Origin: Bacteroidota bacterium
Lineage (GTDB): Bacteria > Bacteroidota > Bacteroidia > AKYH767-A > 2013-40CM-41-45
Length of the DNA: 64,000 nucleotides
NCBI GenBank assembly: GCA_004295015.1
Contig: SHNE01000017.1
Location: 62,001-126,000, forward strand
Direction of reading: 5' to 3'
The notes under the pieces were generated by a model. That model worked only from the letters and a program-made list of their open reading frames with translations. It did not search any database and had not been told where the DNA came from. The position numbers and the translations under genes are program-made. Every line of letters starts with the position of its first letter. The stretch's first letter is position 1. Shown here one piece after another: positions 8,339 to 15,523 of the stretch.

Positions 8339-9283
8339 ATGAAAGTTACAGTAGTAGGAGCCGGAAATGTAGGTGCAACCTGTGCCGATGTAATTGCACG
8401 GAAAGAGTTTGTTCACGAAGTGGTGCTTCTCGATATCAAGGAGGGTGTATCTGAAGGGAAGTCTCTTGACATCTGGCAGACCGCTCCGATTAATTTGTTC
8501 GATACCAGAATGATTGGATCTACTAACGATTACAGTCGAACTGCAAATTCTGATGTCGTAGTAATTACTTCAGGACTACCCAGAAAACCGGGTATGTCAA
8601 GAGATGATCTTATCGCAACAAATGCAGGCATTGTTCGCTCTGTTACTGAAAATATAATTAAGCATTCTCCGAATACCATCATCATCGTAGTTTCTAATCC
8701 ACTGGATGTGATGACTTATTGTGCGTACCTCACAGCACAAATTGATCCTTCACGCGTTTTCGGAATGGCAGGTATTCTTGACACTGCCCGCTATCGTGCG
8801 TTTTTGGCAGAAGCACTGAATGTTTCTCCAAAAGATATTCAGGCTGTGTTGATGGGTGGTCATGGTGATACAATGGTTCCGCTTCCTCGTTATACTACGG
8901 TTGCAGGTATTCCGGTAACGGAGTTGATTTCACCTGAAAAACTCGATGCAATCGTTGAGAGGACCAAGAAGGGTGGCGGTGAATTAGTGAATCTTATGGG
9001 AACATCCGCATGGTATGCACCTGGTGCAGCTGCAGCGCAAATGGTTGAGGCAGTGATAAAGGATCAGAAAAGAATATTTCCTTGCTGTGCATGGTTGAAT
9101 GGTGAATATGGATTGAAAGATATTTATCTTGGAGTTCCTGTAAAACTTGGCCGAAAAGGGATAGAACAAATTATAGAATTACAACTTAATGCCGAAGAGA
9201 AGAAATTACTTACCGATTCAGCCAAAGCCGTAAAAGAAGTAATGGGCGTCCTGGATAACATGTCTCAGGCAGCCAGTAAATAA
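8339..9283 (+). CDS. mdh: Malate dehydrogenase (LDH-like type)
   Basis: NAD-dependent malate/oxaloacetate oxidoreductase of the citric acid cycle. The 314 residues have the Rossmann glycine motif GAGNVGAT at 7-14, substrate arginines in PRKPGMSRDD (R82, R88) and DTARYR (R151), and the catalytic His175 in GGHGDTMVP. Arg82 in this position separates malate from lactate dehydrogenases. The length and the MVPLPRYTTVAGIPV stretch match the bacterial LDH-like Mdh group. It stands alone between the recQ terminator and its own terminator. Confidence 0.95.
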   Translation: MKVTVVGAGNVGATCADVIARKEFVHEVVLLDIKEGVSEGKSLDIWQTAPINLFDTRMIGSTNDYSRTANSDVVVITSGLPRKPGMSRDDLIATNAGIVRSVTENIIKHSPNTIIIVVSNPLDVMTYCAYLTAQIDPSRVFGMAGILDTARYRAFLAEALNVSPKDIQAVLMGGHGDTMVPLPRYTTVAGIPVTELISPEKLDAIVERTKKGGGELVNLMGTSAWYAPGAAAAQMVEAVIKDQKRIFPCCAWLNGEYGLKDIYLGVPVKLGRKGIEQIIELQLNAEEKKLLTDSAKAVKEVMGVLDNMSQAASK

Positions 9284-9343: not shown

Positions 9344-9787
9344 ATGGCTACCCGAATTGTTCGAATACCCTTTAACCTTATTGCAATAGAAGAGGATGGT
9401 TTTCATCTGACAGTCAATGTGAACATTGACGGCAAGAATGCGCTCGTCCTGGTGGATACAGGTGCTTCCCGGTCAGTATTTGATATTAATAGAATAAAAA
9501 ACTTTACTGCTGAACAATCTTTTGAGCAACACGATAAACTCTCAACCGGTTTAGGTACCAATTCTATGGTTACCCATACCACTGATCTTAAAAATTTTAA
9601 AATTGGAGATTTAGTGTTGAAGTCCTTTGAGGCCGTATTATTGGATCTGACTCACGTAAATGAATCCTATTCGAAACTAGGAATTGATCCGATTGATGGA
9701 GTATTCGGAAGTGATTTGCTTCATCGGTACAAAGCGGTCATTGACTATGGGAAATGTGAACTTCAACTTAGGCCGGCAGAAATTTAA
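9344..9787 (+). CDS. Retropepsin-like aspartic protease (clan AA)
   Basis: A 147-residue single-domain protein with the clan AA active-site motif LVDTGAS (DTG at 38-40) followed by the expected hydrophobic flap region and a second hydrophobic-hydrophobic-Gly signature near the end (IDGVFGSDLL, about 122-131). It has no signal peptide, so a cytoplasmic location is likely. Retropepsin-like proteins act as homodimers, with one Asp from each chain. The substrate is unknown. The 3' end overlaps the convergent DCC gene by 4 nt, and no terminator lies between them. Confidence 0.8.
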   Translation: MATRIVRIPFNLIAIEEDGFHLTVNVNIDGKNALVLVDTGASRSVFDINRIKNFTAEQSFEQHDKLSTGLGTNSMVTHTTDLKNFKIGDLVLKSFEAVLLDLTHVNESYSKLGIDPIDGVFGSDLLHRYKAVIDYGKCELQLRPAEI

Positions 9788-10191
9788 CGCAACATTTTTT
9801 TTACCAGCTTTTCATCGAGCGAGCACAGTTTTGATTTACCGAATAGGCGGTACCTGTTTCTTGCTATGAGGTAATAGAATTGATCCCGGAATTTTGCAGG
9901 AATAAATCGTAAAAATTTTCCGAGCCGGGAATAGTTCTTTAACTGAATGAGGATCCTGCAAACAGCCTCAGATGCTTCATAAACGAATTGCTGCTCAATG
10001 AGTATGAGCCTTTCTGGGCCAGGCTTTTCCAGTTGAAATTTATTGAGTAGAATCTTTCCCGGACGTGAATTTAAACCGGTAATGCGAAACCTGTCATCAG
10101 AATCTGCAGTTGCAATAAACCGTACTAATTTGTTGCACATGACACATTCATCATCAATAAGAATGATCGAATGTTCAATGCCTTGATTCAT
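9784..10191 (-). CDS. DCC family thiol-disulfide protein (DUF393)
   Basis: A 135-residue member of the DCC1/DUF393 family, named for its conserved Asp-Cys-Cys pattern. Here the pattern is D14-E-C16-V-M-C19 near the N terminus, a thioredoxin-fold CXXC. The family is usually described as thiol-disulfide oxidoreductase-like, but few members have been tested. It has no signal peptide. Its start codon overlaps the stop of the propeller/cytochrome-like lipoprotein gene (4-nt overlap), which places it as the last gene of that operon and suggests a role with Cys or metal handling there (inference). Confidence 0.85.
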   Translation of the reverse strand: MNQGIEHSIILIDDECVMCNKLVRFIATADSDDRFRITGLNSRPGKILLNKFQLEKPGPERLILIEQQFVYEASEAVCRILIQLKNYSRLGKFLRFIPAKFRDQFYYLIARNRYRLFGKSKLCSLDEKLVKKMLR

Positions 10192-11660
10192 TTTCTGTAG
10201 TCTACGTAGTATGGGAAGTTTAATAATTCATTTTTATATTGAAAGGAACTTCCATCTGAAAGTTCTTTTCTGAAAAGTTGTAGTGTGTTCATGTCTATAA
10301 CCGTGAGGTATCCGTTGCGGCCTCCGCATCCAGAAGAGTGATGCGGTGCAGGTCCGTTTTGATCCGCATTCAAATTTGTTACAAACACACAATTTTCATC
10401 ATCGTCAACTGCAATTCCGTGCGGTTGGTAGCCTGTATATATTGAACTGACTATAGTGTTGCTGTAGTAATTCAACACATAAACCGAGCCCTTTTTATTG
10501 GGATCAATATATGCTTCGGTGCAGGTAACAAAAATGTAGGGATGCGTTAGGGACACTGAAAATTCCTGAGGTTTTTCTCCCACAGGAATAGTTGCGAGCA
10601 AGGAATCATTCGAAGCCTGAAGAACCCTTACCTCATTAGATTTTTGACAGCTGACAAAGTATCTGGAACCATCAGGGCTTAGCATCATCTCATGTGGATC
10701 AAGTGTTGATGCTGTTGTTTTACTTGCTCCTGTTTGTAATACCACTGAATTGAAACTATAAAATGGATCAGTCAGGTCAACTTTATTTATAAAATTCCCT
10801 AACTGTGATGTAAGATAAAGCCAGCGACCATCCGGAGTGATGAATCCTCCGTGAGGGTATTCAGGGCTTAAATTTATTTCCAAGCTGAGTGTTTCTAAAT
10901 TTAATACAACTGTCCTTTGTGCATTTGTTGCGCTGACAAATCCTTTTTTCGAGTCAGGAGAAATAATAATGGTATTCCAGTCTGCAGCACCAATGTCAAC
11001 AGAGCCAACATACGAGTCGTCAGATGCTCGGAACTTTTGAATCACATTTCCCGAATAAAAAACAACATACCAATATTGGCCATCAGGGGATACCCTGACC
11101 ATGTGCGGAGCTTCATATATGAATGGATCAACTCCAACAGGGATATATCGCATGATGGTTTTGGTCTCAGCATCCATTACTGCAACCTGATCACATCCTT
11201 GCATACAGATGTATGCTTTTTTTCTATTTGGATTATCAGAAAATTTTACAAAGCCATTTTTGTCAGGAGCGCCGTCAAGAATCCAATTGTATAAAATATT
11301 GTACTCATCCAAGCTTAATGGAGAATCTTCAAAAGGCATAGTTGGTTCCAAAACAGGACCAAGGCTCGAATCGGTGTTGACGGAGTATAGGAGATAACTG
11401 TATTGGGGACTGAATGGAATAACACTACTGCCATTGCGTCCGCCTTCGAACATGATGTCCCAATTGCTGAAATCCAGTCCGCCTGCATTCGCTCTGCTAA
11501 GATTGTTGTGGCATCCAGAAGTTGCACACTTTTTAACCAAAATATTTGCAACAGCTGGTGGATAGTTTGAATCAGGGATTTGTTCTTCCTTTTCATAAGT
11601 ACAGGAACCTACAAAAACGAAAAGGCTTAGGAACAAAAATAAATGACTTAAATTTCTCAT
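10188..11660 (-). CDS. Lipoprotein with cytochrome-c-like CX4CH segment and YncE-type beta-propeller
   Basis: A 490-residue exported lipoprotein (lipobox VFVGSC, Cys20). Residues about 30-140 resemble a short c-type cytochrome: a CX4CH motif (C45-ATSG-C50-H51) and a downstream TMPF Met that could be the second haem ligand. From about 150 to the end there are repeated blades of the YncE/40-residue propeller type (SPDGQYWYVVF, SPDSKKGFVS, TPDGRWLYLTS, SPDGSRYFVS). The haem motif has four residues between the cysteines instead of two; whether haem is attached is unproven. It is preceded by two KHH lipoproteins (3-nt gap) and followed by the DCC protein (overlap). It may move electrons or bind metal at the cell surface (inference). 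Confidence 0.75.
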   Translation of the reverse strand: MRNLSHLFLFLSLFVFVGSCTYEKEEQIPDSNYPPAVANILVKKCATSGCHNNLSRANAGGLDFSNWDIMFEGGRNGSSVIPFSPQYSYLLYSVNTDSSLGPVLEPTMPFEDSPLSLDEYNILYNWILDGAPDKNGFVKFSDNPNRKKAYICMQGCDQVAVMDAETKTIMRYIPVGVDPFIYEAPHMVRVSPDGQYWYVVFYSGNVIQKFRASDDSYVGSVDIGAADWNTIIISPDSKKGFVSATNAQRTVVLNLETLSLEINLSPEYPHGGFITPDGRWLYLTSQLGNFINKVDLTDPFYSFNSVVLQTGASKTTASTLDPHEMMLSPDGSRYFVSCQKSNEVRVLQASNDSLLATIPVGEKPQEFSVSLTHPYIFVTCTEAYIDPNKKGSVYVLNYYSNTIVSSIYTGYQPHGIAVDDDENCVFVTNLNADQNGPAPHHSSGCGGRNGYLTVIDMNTLQLFRKELSDGSSFQYKNELLNFPYYVDYRK

Positions 11661-11662
11661 AC

Positions 11663-12070
11663 CTATTCGCTCACCATTAGAGTAATTTGAACAGGCTCGC
11701 CAATGGAAGAGGTATTGCTCAGATTTATAGCTGTTGATCCCAGAACATCAGCGCCAAAGTAATAGTCATACCCATGAGCAAACAGGTAATAATTTCCGGG
11801 ATACAACTTTGCAAATGTGGCCTTACCATCACTATCGGCAAATGTTGTTAATTCGTATAGACTGGTATCGGTGCCCGGGAATTCGCTTGCATTCTTTTTA
11901 AGGTAGAGTGGAATATTGGGTACATTCCAAGAATGGTGTTTGACCTGGATTTCCAGAGCTAAAGTACCCTCAATGATTTGAGGAGCATCAGTATTTTTCT
12001 TGCAGGAGGAAATCATCATCACTATTAGTGCGATAACTGACCACATTCCTGAAAGCCCTAGAATTCTCAT
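11663..12070 (-). CDS. Lipoprotein, KHH paralog 2, function unknown
   Basis: Small predicted lipoprotein of 135 residues. The ATG at 12070 is preferred over the upstream TTG at 12094, because it places a normal signal peptide (MRILGL...) before the lipobox ending SSC-KKN. The mature part looks like a small beta-sandwich. It shares with the gene upstream the pattern KHH about 20 residues after the Cys, and G-YYL-A-G-D (PGNYYLFAHGYD) near the middle, so the two are diverged duplicates. It lies 3 nt from the cytochrome/propeller gene. I do not recognise a named family. The repeated KHH invites a metal-binding role, which is inference. Confidence 0.65.
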   Translation of the reverse strand: MRILGLSGMWSVIALIVMMISSCKKNTDAPQIIEGTLALEIQVKHHSWNVPNIPLYLKKNASEFPGTDTSLYELTTFADSDGKATFAKLYPGNYYLFAHGYDYYFGADVLGSTAINLSNTSSIGEPVQITLMVSE

Positions 12071-12129
12071 TTTTGAAAGCTTATACAATAACAAATATCT
12101 TTCCGATAAAATGGTGTTTTCAAATTTAC

Positions 12130-12546
12130 CTACTCTGTAACTGCAATGTCTACCGGTATTTCACCGCTTGTTTGTTCTGTTGAATAAGGTCTGCCTCCTC
12201 TTACAACTTCGCCTCCAGGAGATGAAGTATCCCAGCCTGAAGCGTATAAATAATAGTCACCACACTTTAGTCCTGAAATATGAACGTGATCCTCAGGATA
12301 CTCACCTATAAACATTGCATCTGCGCCTGAAGGAGCACCGCTCCAATCTTGAACATTGTACTTGATCCAAACTGTATCAGGTCGCAAAGAATCGTTAATA
12401 ATCACTGCGCCATGATGTTTTAATTTCGCTAACAAGATTAAGCTTCCTCCGCTGCCGGCTTCACATTTGTTGTCTTTTTTGCAAGAAACGCTTAACAAAG
12501 AAGCCGTAGCGATAAAGAATAAGATTAGATATTTTACAGATTTCAT
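12130..12546 (-). CDS. Lipoprotein, KHH paralog 1, function unknown
   Basis: Predicted lipoprotein of 138 residues with a clear signal peptide and lipobox (LLSVSC-KKD). The mature chain has AKLKHHG, then DTVWIKYN, and CGDYYLYASGWD, matching the pattern of the next gene (KHH; PGNYYLFAHGYD). The WIKYN stretch suggests an edge strand of a beta-sandwich. It lies 228 nt downstream of the TonB-dependent receptor with a TAnnTTTG box in that gap, and 59 nt upstream of its paralog, so the lipoprotein-to-DCC genes may have their own promoter. Function is unknown. Confidence 0.65.
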   Translation of the reverse strand: MKSVKYLILFFIATASLLSVSCKKDNKCEAGSGGSLILLAKLKHHGAVIINDSLRPDTVWIKYNVQDWSGAPSGADAMFIGEYPEDHVHISGLKCGDYYLYASGWDTSSPGGEVVRGGRPYSTEQTSGEIPVDIAVTE

Positions 12547-12756
12547 ATTTCTTAATTGTTTTTTTAGAAGTTAATAAGGGAGTATTGCTAAACAAATTTT
12601 CTATGCGATAGTTTTACTAATAAACGCCTTGGATTTTCATGCAAGAGCTTTGAGGCCGGATTGTTTCCCTTAACAGAGGATAATAGTCATTCAGGCACAG
12701 AGGTGAAAATACTAAATTGATAGCAATGATTGTGATAATATTGTCAGATTTTATTG

Positions 12757-12788
12757 CAAAAATACTGTTCATAATCATTTTATCCCAA
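12757..12788 (-). promoter_or_regulatory. Candidate promoter for the lipoprotein/cytochrome-like/DCC genes
   Basis: On the minus strand: TTG (12788-12786), 21 nt, then TATTTTTG (12764-12757), matching TTG-N19-21-TAnnTTTG. It overlaps the last codons of the TonB receptor gene. Use of this site would give a leader of about 200 nt ahead of the first lipoprotein. Confidence 0.5.
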
Positions 12789-15078
12789 TAGGCACCATAA
12801 GGCCAAGACTAATGCTCCTTCCCGGACCATTTACACCTATTTCTTTCATACGACTAAGATGGTCAAAGTAGGACGTGTTAAGCAAATTGCTGATCCTTAT
12901 AAAGAAAAGAGCCGTTTGTTCATCCATTCTAATGTGTGATCCAATCCCAATATTAACCAAGCTGTATCCTTTCGTTTTTGTTTCAAACTGATCTATCCGG
13001 TTTTGACTTAAACTGCTTACCAGTTCAAGTTTCAAATAAGGTTCTTGCAAACGTCTGCCGTTTTTACTTGGGATTTCAAACTTCAATTCGTTTACTATTT
13101 TCATTGGTGGAATTAAGGTTAAGGGTTCATTACCGGCTTCGTTTTGCCCATGAACATAAGAGAGACTATTTTCGAAGTGAAGATTTTTAATAGGGTGTAT
13201 GTCGAGTGTGAACTCTCCACCCTTTAATGTTGACTGTCCCTGAATATAGGAATAAACCGGATAGTCGATTCCATCAATTGCCATAGTCTCTCCGTCAATA
13301 TTTCTGCTGTAAATAAAATTGTCAATATTGTTTAGAAACAAATTAAGGGATAATTCTACAGACTTACTGTCATAGGAAATTCCGAGGTCAAATTGTAATG
13401 ATGTTTCAGATTTTAGATTCTTGTTTCCTTTCTCAAACCGTTGTGTTCCTTCATGAATTCCATTTGATGCCAGCTCAGGAATATTCGGAGATCTGAAACC
13501 TCTTCCAAGATTGGCTTTTAAATCTACTTTCTGACTTAATTTGTGAGTGACTCCCACAGAGGCAGAGATGCTGGAGTAATTACGATTAAATGAATCAAAA
13601 AGGATAAGGCTGTCAATATTTAATTCTTCGGAATTGATGGTCCGGTGATCGTATCTCAGGCCGGCGTTTAAAGTTGTTAAGTCAAATGACTTTCTAAGCG
13701 AAGAAAAAATTCCTATGTCGTCCAGCTGATAATCGGGGATTAGAAATTCTCTTCCCAGATTCTCATTCAGCTGACGCATGCCTGAAATCCCTATAGCAGT
13801 TTCCAGATTATTTACTTCAGGTAAATAGTATTTGAGGTCATAGCTTACAGTATTAAGCTTTAGAGATATTTCAGGTGATTCTTTTGTGACACTGAATTCT
13901 TTCCGGTTATTTTGTTGAACACCTATATTGAAACGAAGCTGACTTTTCCCAATTATAAAATTATTTACAGCTGAAATTTTAGAGTGGGAGACATCCTGAA
14001 ACGGAACAGATACTGATCTTGAATGTAATTTATTCTCTGTAGGGACATTTCCGTTTTCATCAAGCATTTTTCCGCTTAATGAGTCACGCTCTCCTTCAGT
14101 GATTCCGATCGTATTATACCATTTGCTTGCATGGATATGGCTGTATCCCCATTGCCTGTGTAGGCCAAGAAGAGCGTCCACACTTTTTTCTTCATATGCA
14201 GAATTATAGACAGTTTCTATTGGGGTTTTATATGGTGCGGCATTTTTGTAGGAAGCCCTTGCCCTCCAGGTAAAACCATGTGCATTTCCTTCAGTCATAA
14301 CTGAATTGGAACTGAGCGAATTGTTAGAGGAGAATTGGGAATTAATTTCTGCCCTGATTTTTCCTGGAGAGGGTAAAATTGGTTCAAGAATATTGATCAC
14401 TCCACCTAATGCATCTGAACCATAGAGCAGGCTTGAAGGTCCTTTTAGTATTTCAATTCTGTCTGCTGAATACTGATCTATTTCTAATCCATGTTCGTCT
14501 CCCCATTGTTGTCCCTCTTGTCGGATGCCTTCGTTCACCACTACTACCCGGTTGTAGCCTAATCCCCGAATTACAGGTTTTGAAATCGAGTTTCCGGTAC
14601 TTATCGTGGATATTCCGGGTATATTTGAGAGGGATTGAACCAGGTTGTCGGAAGCAGTGCTCAGGATTTTAATTTTGTCAACCGGGGTAATAGCGACACT
14701 GGTTCTTTTTGCATCGGTTGTGAATGCGCTGCCTGTTACTACAATTTCATTTTTTTCTATAATGCTCACCCGGAGAGAAAAATCTTTGACGGTCGTCAAA
14801 TTTAAATCGATTGTTTGGCTCAACGTGGAGTATCCGATCAGCCTTACCTGTATCAGTAGTTTTCGCTTAGGTAAGTTGTTAAGGAAGTATTTTCCATTCA
14901 AGTCGGTTACGGCACCGGTTCTCAAATCTGGTATATAAATGGTCGCGCCGGGCAAAACTTCTTTGCTCTGGTCGTCTATCACAATACCTTGTAATGTTTG
15001 TGCCTGAATTGATTCTGAAATGCTTAAAACCAGCATTATGGTCATTAACATGTACTTCGCTATAGTTACATTTCTCAT
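12775..15078 (-). CDS. TonB-dependent outer-membrane receptor
   Basis: A 767-residue receptor with a signal peptide ending in ESIQA-Q, a CarboxypepD_reg-like domain (about 28-110, LQGIVIDDQSKEVLPGA), a plug domain (about 120-235, IRGLGYNRVVVVNEGIR and then the GDEHG stretch and GSDALGGVINI) and a 22-strand-type barrel to a terminal residue after LGLMVPIGIK. Plug sequences with W-G-D-E-H-G are reminiscent of receptors placed near zinc or copper uptake genes, but the ligand cannot be assigned from sequence. It is downstream of a HYC_CC_PP-like small protein and upstream of two lipoproteins, the cytochrome/propeller protein and a DCC protein. No SusD partner is present, which argues against glycan uptake. 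Confidence 0.9.
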   Translation of the reverse strand: MRNVTIAKYMLMTIMLVLSISESIQAQTLQGIVIDDQSKEVLPGATIYIPDLRTGAVTDLNGKYFLNNLPKRKLLIQVRLIGYSTLSQTIDLNLTTVKDFSLRVSIIEKNEIVVTGSAFTTDAKRTSVAITPVDKIKILSTASDNLVQSLSNIPGISTISTGNSISKPVIRGLGYNRVVVVNEGIRQEGQQWGDEHGLEIDQYSADRIEILKGPSSLLYGSDALGGVINILEPILPSPGKIRAEINSQFSSNNSLSSNSVMTEGNAHGFTWRARASYKNAAPYKTPIETVYNSAYEEKSVDALLGLHRQWGYSHIHASKWYNTIGITEGERDSLSGKMLDENGNVPTENKLHSRSVSVPFQDVSHSKISAVNNFIIGKSQLRFNIGVQQNNRKEFSVTKESPEISLKLNTVSYDLKYYLPEVNNLETAIGISGMRQLNENLGREFLIPDYQLDDIGIFSSLRKSFDLTTLNAGLRYDHRTINSEELNIDSLILFDSFNRNYSSISASVGVTHKLSQKVDLKANLGRGFRSPNIPELASNGIHEGTQRFEKGNKNLKSETSLQFDLGISYDSKSVELSLNLFLNNIDNFIYSRNIDGETMAIDGIDYPVYSYIQGQSTLKGGEFTLDIHPIKNLHFENSLSYVHGQNEAGNEPLTLIPPMKIVNELKFEIPSKNGRRLQEPYLKLELVSSLSQNRIDQFETKTKGYSLVNIGIGSHIRMDEQTALFFIRISNLLNTSYFDHLSRMKEIGVNGPGRSISLGLMVPIGIK

Positions 15079-15130
15079 AGCTATAAAGGGGTTTAGTTAC
15101 TAATGCATTTGTAGAATAATAAATTCATAA

Positions 15131-15166
15131 CATCATCATCTCATAAAATTGATTGAGATGATGATG
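15131..15166 (-). promoter_or_regulatory. Perfect 13-bp hairpin between the small Cys/His gene and the TonB receptor
   Basis: The arms CATCATCATCTCA (15131-15143) and TGAGATGATGATG (15154-15166) pair without mismatch around a 10-nt loop. No convincing T tract follows on the minus strand, so it is better read as an RNA processing, stability or attenuation element than a terminator. Confidence 0.5.
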
Positions 15167-15185
15167 AGAATTTTTAAAAATTGCA

Positions 15186-15509
15186 TTAGCACATGGGCGG
15201 CCCCCGTAGATCAGGGATGAATAAATCGAAATGGTAACAATATAAAAAAGTTGGGAAGCCAACTTCTGCTTTATAGGACGCAGGTTGGATTTCAAAATCA
15301 GAAATAGAAAGGTGTAACGATGGAGCAGAAAATTGAAGATTGCAACAATGTTCGTGCATTGGCACCAGTTGAGCATCTTCGGAATCCGAACAATGAAAAG
15401 CATTTTCTTCATCATCATGAACCAATGCATGAACGTATGTACGAGGTACAATGATCGTGGATATGACCAGAAGTAAAAATCCTGCAAAATATTTTTTATG
15501 CCTTTTCAC
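15186..15509 (-). CDS. HYC_CC_PP-like small exported Cys/His protein
   Basis: A 107-residue protein with an N-terminal signal-anchor-like segment (FAGFLLLVIST), followed by His and Cys pairs (NAFHC, HEHCC) and a terminal RGPPMC. This layout is that of the Bacteroidota HYC_CC_PP family, which is often next to TonB receptors. Function is not established, but His/Cys density suggests metal or redox sensing (inference). A longer frame could begin at a TTG at 15518, but that TTG lies inside an exact TAnnTTTG box (15516-15523). I therefore prefer the GTG at 15509, which gives a normal signal sequence. It heads the operon with the TonB receptor 107 nt downstream. Confidence 0.65.
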   Translation of the reverse strand: MKRHKKYFAGFLLLVISTIIVPRTYVHALVHDDEENAFHCSDSEDAQLVPMHEHCCNLQFSAPSLHLSISDFEIQPASYKAEVGFPTFLYCYHFDLFIPDLRGPPMC

Positions 15510-15515
15510 GATTGC

Positions 15516-15523
15516 CAAAGGTA
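15516..15523 (-). promoter_or_regulatory. TAnnTTTG box abutting the start of the Cys/His operon
   Basis: TACCTTTG on the minus strand is an exact -7 match that ends 6 nt before the GTG at 15509. It decides the start codon choice, because the TTG at 15518 would lie inside the promoter. No good -33 element was found. Confidence 0.45.

What the first reader, a model, noticed from the sequence alone, without database searches (positions are those of the whole stretch)
9784..15523. A six-gene surface operon joining a Cys/His protein, a TonB receptor, duplicate KHH lipoproteins, a cytochrome/propeller protein and a DCC protein
The genes are collinear and mostly tightly spaced (3-59 nt among the last four, a 4-nt overlap at the end, 107 and 228 nt earlier). 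They combine proteins that could take up a metal or move electrons: a HYC_CC_PP-like small protein, a TonB receptor without SusD, two duplicated lipoproteins with KHH, a CX4CH-bearing propeller lipoprotein and a CXXC thiol protein. I know of no described system with exactly this set.
Basis: partly seen in the sequence, partly recalled or inferred. Interest (0 to 1): 0.75.

Follow-up and report, generated by a model that had tools for sequence, protein, structure and literature searches.

The report
Metal-sensing leader gene and surface operon
This bacterial operon appears to begin with a tiny protein that senses a metal (probably copper) while still inside the ribosome and so controls an outer-membrane metal receptor, followed by two small surface proteins and an undescribed heme-containing propeller protein whose histidines look like a metal site.

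Summary
The six genes are there as described. They form two modules. (1) Core: KHH lipoprotein(s), a cytochrome/propeller lipoprotein (PROP), often DCC. PROP is in 107 of 395 sampled genomes of the class, KHH in 99, both in 82. PROP is a predicted 7-bladed propeller with an N-terminal c-heme domain. Four histidines sit at equivalent starts of inner strands, plus an HH doublet; the four are largely lost together in some paralogues. KHH has near-invariant H, H, D and E. Neither has a family name. (2) Optional head: small Cys/His gene plus TonB receptor. The small gene is not a HYC_CC_PP match but carries HxHC, exactly 46 residues, RGPP, then the stop: the layout of the copper-sensing arrest peptide CruR (CXXC-45-RAPP). 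A DNA-pattern search matched 32 genomes at spacing 46 and 2 at spacing 47; 29 of 30 inspected end within 6 residues of RGPP/RAPP, and 23 head a receptor with the same QQWGxEH plug. The window's leader/receptor junction folds into a strong hairpin (z -6.1). The receptor keeps three ZnuD metal-ligand positions. Copper is favoured (MbnP/MbnH near PROP in some relatives) but not shown. The leader is a new variant of a known kind; the PROP/KHH pair is undescribed.

The parts
15186..15518 (-). Leader ORF (110 aa from TTG; GTG at 15509 also possible): exported small protein with HEHC, 46-residue spacer, RGPP, 2-residue tail; candidate metal-sensing arrest peptide
   Evidence: Only HxHC-46-R[AG]PP match in the 64 kb window; same spacing in relatives; no Pfam/NCBIfam match
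15195..15356 (-). HxHC to RGPP segment of the leader ORF
15098..15191 (-). RNA hairpin spanning the leader's last codons/stop and the intergenic region: outer helix 15182-15191 with 15098-15107, inner 13-bp stem 15154-15166 with 15131-15143
   Evidence: strand folding of 15079-15200: -29.6 kcal/mol, z -6.1, 0 of 200 dinucleotide shuffles as stable
12775..15078 (-). TonB-dependent receptor with CarbopepD_reg_2 domain and QQWGDEHG plug motif; E195-H196 and H542 align with ZnuD D99-H100 and H499
   Evidence: ZnuD ligands from PMC4557270
12130..12546 (-). KHHa lipoprotein (C22 lipobox; near-invariant H44, H45, D106, E138), predicted beta-sandwich
11663..12094 (-). KHHb lipoprotein (probable ATG start at 12070), paralogue of KHHa
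10188..11660 (-). PROP: lipoprotein with N-terminal c-type cytochrome domain (CX4CH 45-51, Met108) and 7-bladed propeller with conserved H186, H270, H323, H414, H440-H441 and C156/C445
9784..10191 (-). DCC1-like thiol-disulfide oxidoreductase (PF04134; CVMC), overlaps PROP by 4 nt
   Evidence: near PROP on the same strand in 27 of 81 surveyed loci

Best explanation
A metal-uptake and metal-use operon of the cell envelope, most likely for copper. Inferred: the first gene is a cis-acting nascent-chain sensor. When metal is scarce the ribosome stalls at the C-terminal RGPP and holds the leader/receptor hairpin open, so the receptor and following genes are made. When metal binds the HxHC site, just emerging from the ribosome 46 residues upstream, the stall is relieved and expression falls, as for CruR. 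Shown here by sequence: the motif, its exact spacing, its C-terminal place, its position ahead of the receptor, and the predicted hairpin. Inferred: the receptor brings metal or metal chelate to the periplasm; the KHH lipoproteins bind it through HH plus D/E and pass it on or form part of PROP; PROP is a lipoprotein oxidoreductase in which a channel-mouth histidine cluster binds metal and the fused c-heme moves electrons; DCC keeps thiols in order. Rough likelihoods: arrest-type sensor 0.8, envelope metal system 0.75, copper specifically 0.5-0.55, PROP a metal-plus-heme redox enzyme 0.6.
For: Leader: in 11 divergent leaders ahead of the PROP-linked receptors the metal motif lies 46 residues before R[AG]PP (CXXC forms 47/44) while spacer identity averages 12%. 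The pattern search matched 32 of 277 genomes at spacing 46, against 2 at spacing 47 and 1 for the reversed-pattern control; 29 of 30 end within 6 residues of the motif and 23 precede a QQWGxEH receptor. Of 14 genomes with both this pattern and PROP, 10 have them within about 8 kb (coordinates). Published: CruR CXXC-45-RAPP controls a copper-repressed TonB receptor (PMC9426467); RAPP and RGPP are particularly robust arrest motifs and occur upstream of TonB receptors (PMC12992588). Hairpin z -6.1; 28 such junctions have median z -2.1 against -0.5 for 120 controls, p 7e-4. PROP: heme motif and Met108 in 100-101 of 101; H186/H270 lost in the same 7 proteins, H323/H414 largely with them; C156/C445 co-lost; HH doublet in 110 of 115 including other classes, where two relatives have canonical CVECH. 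KHH: H, H, D, E near-invariant in 59, with one degenerate tandem copy that lost H, H and E together. PROP/KHH co-occurrence 82 of 107/99, Fisher 1e-44. Copper link: MbnP (187.8 bits) and an MbnH-like di-heme protein beside KHH-PROP-DCC.
Against: No experiment and no coordinates: histidine distances were not measured. MbnP is near PROP in only 8 of about 100 loci, mostly one family. The window leader has HxHC, not CXXC, and fails DUF2946. Receptor models score best for hemin, then ZnuD, then copper, all below cut-off, so zinc or heme is open. Pairing of the leader's stop region is no commoner than in control junctions (17 of 28 against 81 of 120). Fisher values ignore shared ancestry. Outside the class PROP sits beside FG-GAP or choice-of-anchor-type surface proteins, not metal genes.
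Confidence: 0.55

Rival explanations
1. Same architecture, but the metal is zinc or iron/heme: the leader and receptor serve zinc or heme uptake and PROP holds another metal.
For: Best receptor models are TonB-hemin (183 bits) and ZnuD (140 bits); three ZnuD zinc-ligand positions are kept. The ZnuD paper notes the site overlaps a heme site of heme receptors. HxHC is a plausible zinc site.
Against: MbnP/MbnH neighbours are copper-linked; known leaders of this layout (CruR, CutF) sense copper.
Confidence: 0.25
2. PROP is an electron-transfer or structural surface protein (heme c plus a propeller used for binding), and the conserved histidines do not hold a metal cluster; or it holds a heme d1-like cofactor as NirS/NirN do.
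For: Foldseek ranks an archaeal YVTN propeller and NirN/NirS highest; the cytochrome-plus-propeller order is the same; distant relatives sit beside secreted FG-GAP propellers.
Against: Seven blades by strand count, not eight; no heme d1 NirJ over cut-off in the own genome (57.7 against 515 bits); generic YVTN proteins lack His at these positions (alignments); the histidines vary as a set.
Confidence: 0.25
3. The first gene is an exported metal-binding protein (chaperone or sink), not an arrest peptide.
For: It has a signal-like N terminus and many His/Cys residues.
Against: Exact spacing with an unconserved spacer, and a C-terminal RGPP/RAPP motif that bacterial proteomes avoid (PMC12992588), are not expected of a chaperone.
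Confidence: 0.12
4. The six genes are adjacent by chance and do not work together.
For: The receptor module is absent from most PROP loci (TBDR in 10 of 81).
Against: KHH-PROP co-occurrence and repeated linkage of leader-receptor with PROP in three families.
Confidence: 0.07

Closest known systems
CruR (Bordetella pertussis, DUF2946) heading the bfrG/crtA TonB receptor operon
   Same: Small exported leader ahead of a TonB receptor; Cys metal motif about 45 residues before a C-terminal R[AG]PP; leader/receptor intergenic gap (107 nt here, 162 nt there)
   Different: HxHC instead of CXXC in the window (CXXC in the f25 relatives); no significant DUF2946 match; copper response untested; the downstream KHH/PROP genes are new
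CutF (Rhodobacter capsulatus) of cutFOG
   Same: Nascent exported copper sensor with a proline motif and a downstream RNA stem-loop
   Different: CutF has CxxxC and controls a multicopper oxidase; the window leader precedes a TonB receptor
RAPP/RGPP upstream ORFs of TonB receptors (Fujiwara et al. 2025, PMC12992588)
   Same: The window leader falls in this statistically described class
   Different: In the passages read, no HxHC motif or fixed 46-residue spacing is reported; copper-related leaders were said to be missing in Bacteroidota
ZnuD zinc receptor (PDB 4rdr)
   Same: D/E-H plug ligands and a barrel His position align
   Different: 140 bits against a cut-off of 950; the fourth ligand (E340) is not aligned; extra carboxypeptidase-like N-terminal domain
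Nitrous oxide reductase / thiocyanate dehydrogenase (histidine-lined 7-bladed copper propellers)
   Same: HH doublet plus single His at inner strands of a 7-bladed propeller
   Different: About 12% identity to TcDH; different His order and spacing; fused N-terminal heme c, lipoprotein; metal untested
NirN / NirS
   Same: N-terminal cytochrome c domain fused to a propeller
   Different: 8 blades and heme d1; here 7 blades and no NirJ over cut-off in the genome
MbnP/MbnH
   Same: Co-located copper-linked pair in some relatives; three pairs elsewhere in the own genome
   Different: Not part of the window operon

Membership tests
CruR / DUF2946 copper leader | Small ORF directly upstream of a TonB receptor in an operon | tested here: met
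   23 of 30 pattern matches
CruR / DUF2946 copper leader | C-terminal RAPP-type arrest motif | tested here: met
   RGPP, 2 residues before the end
CruR / DUF2946 copper leader | Metal motif 45 (within 2) residues before the arrest motif | tested here: met
   46 residues (control spacing 47)
CruR / DUF2946 copper leader | CXXC motif | tested here: not met
   Window has HEHCC; CXXC only in L154, L155, L158 among PROP-linked leaders
CruR / DUF2946 copper leader | Match to PF11162 | tested here: not met
   None for the window; L158 E 0.017, 16.3 bits against 23.7
CruR / DUF2946 copper leader | Copper-dependent ribosome stalling | not testable with these tools
   Needs bench work
HYC_CC_PP small protein | Match to an NCBIfam model of that name | tested here: not met
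   No such NCBIfam match at E 1 for the window or nine relatives; whether the release holds a model of that name was not checked separately
L-NosZ nitrous oxide reductase | NF052460 score over cut-off | tested here: not met
   43 bits against 700
L-NosZ nitrous oxide reductase | CuA cupredoxin domain | tested here: not met
   No cupredoxin match; protein ends with the propeller
Thiocyanate dehydrogenase | 7-bladed propeller fold | tested here: met
   (TMq 0.53)
Thiocyanate dehydrogenase | Active-site K103, H135, H136, H206, H381, H437, H482, H528 in register | tested here: inconclusive
   HH doublet and single His present but order and spacing differ (residues from PMC6504805); no residue-level alignment obtained
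cd1 nitrite reductase / NirN | 8-bladed heme d1 propeller with d1 biosynthesis in the genome | tested here: not met
   7 inner strands; NirJ not over cut-off
ZnuD | NF038289 cut-off | tested here: not met
   140 bits against 950
ZnuD | High-affinity ligands D99, H100, E340, H499 | tested here: inconclusive
   E195, H196, H542 align with D99, H100, H499; E340 region not aligned
SusC/SusD or BtuB system | SusD partner, or B12 or SusC receptor model over cut-off | tested here: not met
   No SusD in the operon; TIGR01779 74 bits against 600, TIGR04056 80 against 368
c-type cytochrome domain of PROP | Heme attachment Cys-Cys-His and distal Met | tested here: met
   CX4CH 101/101, Met108 100/101; canonical CVECH at the same place in L208, L209; PF07635 only 18.1 bits against 22

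The most novel reading that the evidence does not exclude
PROP is a third kind of histidine-lined copper propeller enzyme, after nitrous oxide reductase and thiocyanate dehydrogenase, with its own fused heme c, widespread in Bacteroidota, supplied by a new family of HH lipoproteins and, in this genome, switched by a new HxHC-type metal-sensing arrest peptide.
Probability: 0.28. Interest if true: 0.88.

Novelty: new variant of a known kind. Interest (0 to 1): 0.68.

Why it matters
How Bacteroidota sense and take up copper or similar metals is poorly known. The fixed 46-residue HxHC-RGPP rule finds these leaders where no family model does, and points to a receptor family (QQWGxEH plug) that can be tested at once. 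The PROP/KHH pair would add an undescribed heme-plus-metal protein to the envelopes of roughly a quarter of the sampled genomes of the class.

Tried and rejected
The L-NosZ family search rang nowhere, including controls, so it does not show absence. A first drift-prone profile search over-merged the FG-GAP and MbnP groups and was redone with stricter seeds. Apparent loss of H441 in L187-L190 and L193 was an alignment slip: the HH doublet is there. One search was typed with 141 N by mistake and so served as the spacing-47 control. Pairing of the leader's stop region as a hallmark was rejected: controls do it as often. The KHH fold search gave no significant match (best E 5e-3). Reading the propeller as a NosZ, TcDH or NirS member was rejected or left open on the membership tests.
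Full report
Observation. The six minus-strand genes stand as described. The TonB receptor and DCC pass Pfam cut-offs; the propeller matches propeller and planctomycete-cytochrome models below cut-off; the small first gene and both KHH proteins match nothing reliable. The HYC_CC_PP label was not confirmed.

What is conserved. PROP was found in all 33 high-quality genomes of the order, in 107 of 395 genomes of the class and, as divergent forms besides the own genome, in 16 of 395 of a phylum-wide draw. KHH was found in 99 of the same 395 class genomes, 82 of them shared with PROP (Fisher 1e-44, not corrected for ancestry). Of 81 loci with enough flank, KHH is within five same-strand genes in 41, DCC in 27, an FG-GAP secreted propeller in 34, and the receptor in 10. 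So the core is KHH-PROP with DCC often following, and the leader-receptor pair is an optional head. That head recurs at PROP in families f1, f25 and f41. The complete six-gene order was seen in G000 and G010; G009 has five of the six.

PROP. AlphaFold2 gives a confident model (pLDDT 91.6): a helical N-terminal domain with CX4CH and a distal Met (inferred c-type heme), then a propeller with seven inner strands. Each inner strand starts with a residue at the same structural position. Four of the seven are His (186, 270, 323, 414); an HH doublet (440-441) lies in a long loop on what should be the same face (inferred from the strand order; no coordinates were available). In 101 proteins H186 and H270 are lost in exactly the same seven, and H323 and H414 largely with them; C156 and C445 also go together, which suggests a disulfide. 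The HH doublet is present in 110 of 115 including other classes. Generic YVTN propellers have other residues at these places (alignments). Two distant relatives carry a canonical CVECH at the CX4CH position, which supports heme attachment. Foldseek places the model near YVTN propellers, NirN/NirS, hydrazine synthase beta and thiocyanate dehydrogenase, with no close sequence relative. TcDH is a 7-bladed propeller with three coppers in the channel (PMC9456337), so PROP may work like it, but it is not filed as a member.

KHH. The family has no Pfam, NCBIfam or PDB relative. The model is a beta-sandwich (pLDDT 92.4) with no significant fold match. In 59 sequences H44, H45, D106 and E138 are near-invariant, and the one tandem copy that lost both His also lost the Glu. 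A metal site is the natural reading, not shown.

Receptor. The best PDB relative is ZnuD. The alignment puts E195-H196 of the plug on ZnuD D99-H100 and H542 on H499 (chain numbering minus 14, inferred), three of the four zinc ligands named in PMC4557270. H196 and H542 are invariant in ten PROP-linked receptors. This speaks against a known sugar or cobalamin type, but does not exclude heme.

Leader. In eleven leaders ahead of PROP-linked receptors the metal motif is 46 residues before R[AG]PP (47/44 for the CXXC form), with 12% spacer identity. A DNA pattern for HxHC-46 codons-R[AG]PP matched 32 of 277 genomes; the same pattern at 47 codons matched two, and the reversed pattern one. Of 30 matches examined all are open, 29 end within six residues of the motif, and 23 are followed by a receptor with QQWGxEH. 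This matches the layout of CruR (CXXC, 45 residues, RAPP; PMC9426467), whose arrest was shown in vitro in PMC12992588. That paper also finds RAPP/RGPP leaders upstream of TonB receptors in Gram-negatives generally, so the kind is known. The HxHC motif and its exact spacing in Bacteroidota I did not find described in the passages read. The window's junction folds strongly (z -6.1), with the outer helix covering the leader's last codons and stop; 28 related junctions are more structured than 120 controls, but the arm position itself is not distinctive.

Which metal. Copper is favoured: MbnP, and in some cases an MbnH-like di-heme protein, lie on the same strand near PROP in eight loci, and known leaders of this layout sense copper. 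MbnP and MbnH were known partners of methanobactin loci of then unclear role (PMC3621798). Zinc and heme remain possible.

Verdict. A real, mostly undescribed envelope metal operon. The leader is a new variant of a known regulatory kind. PROP and KHH are a conserved pair without a name whose enzyme function is open.

Noticed in passing
window 8339-9283 and 9344-9787 (+): Malate-dehydrogenase-like gene and an aspartyl protease lie convergently downstream of DCC; the protease and a 311-315 aa gene keep this place at PROP loci of several families (f1, f5, f25, f41).
   Followed up: partly
L047, L080, L145, L148, L149, L155, L159, L194: A second type of small leader (C[NK]G[KS]CHLxK ... HPP or QPP near the C terminus) heads operons with MbnP or outer-membrane barrel genes beside PROP; possibly another arrest-type sensor.
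   Followed up: partly
L204:7216-15000, L205:6652-8483, L206:5281-7088: The own genome has three MbnP-MbnH-like pairs away from the window; one is followed, after two intervening genes including a small His-rich ORF, by a CusA-like RND efflux gene.
   Followed up: partly
L235, L236: HxHC-46-R[AG]PP leaders (family f7) precede a small lipoprotein gene with DGHSHGK instead of a receptor.
   Followed up: no
L089:14231-15730, L058:8371-9819: PROP paralogues that keep heme and the HH doublet but lost the four single channel histidines, in genomes that also have an intact copy; natural inactive controls.
   Followed up: no
L142: Tandem KHH genes, one degenerate at both His and the C-terminal Glu.
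   Followed up: no
L096, L098, L216-L218: FG-GAP secreted propellers with T9SS tails, and in other classes choice-of-anchor-B-like proteins, sit next to PROP.
   Followed up: partly
L145, L154, L155, L158: Outer-membrane barrel-like proteins whose mature part begins CDFCGC[FY]MGITPYDNQ, next to KHH-PROP; the one scanned (L154) matches no Pfam family.
   Followed up: no
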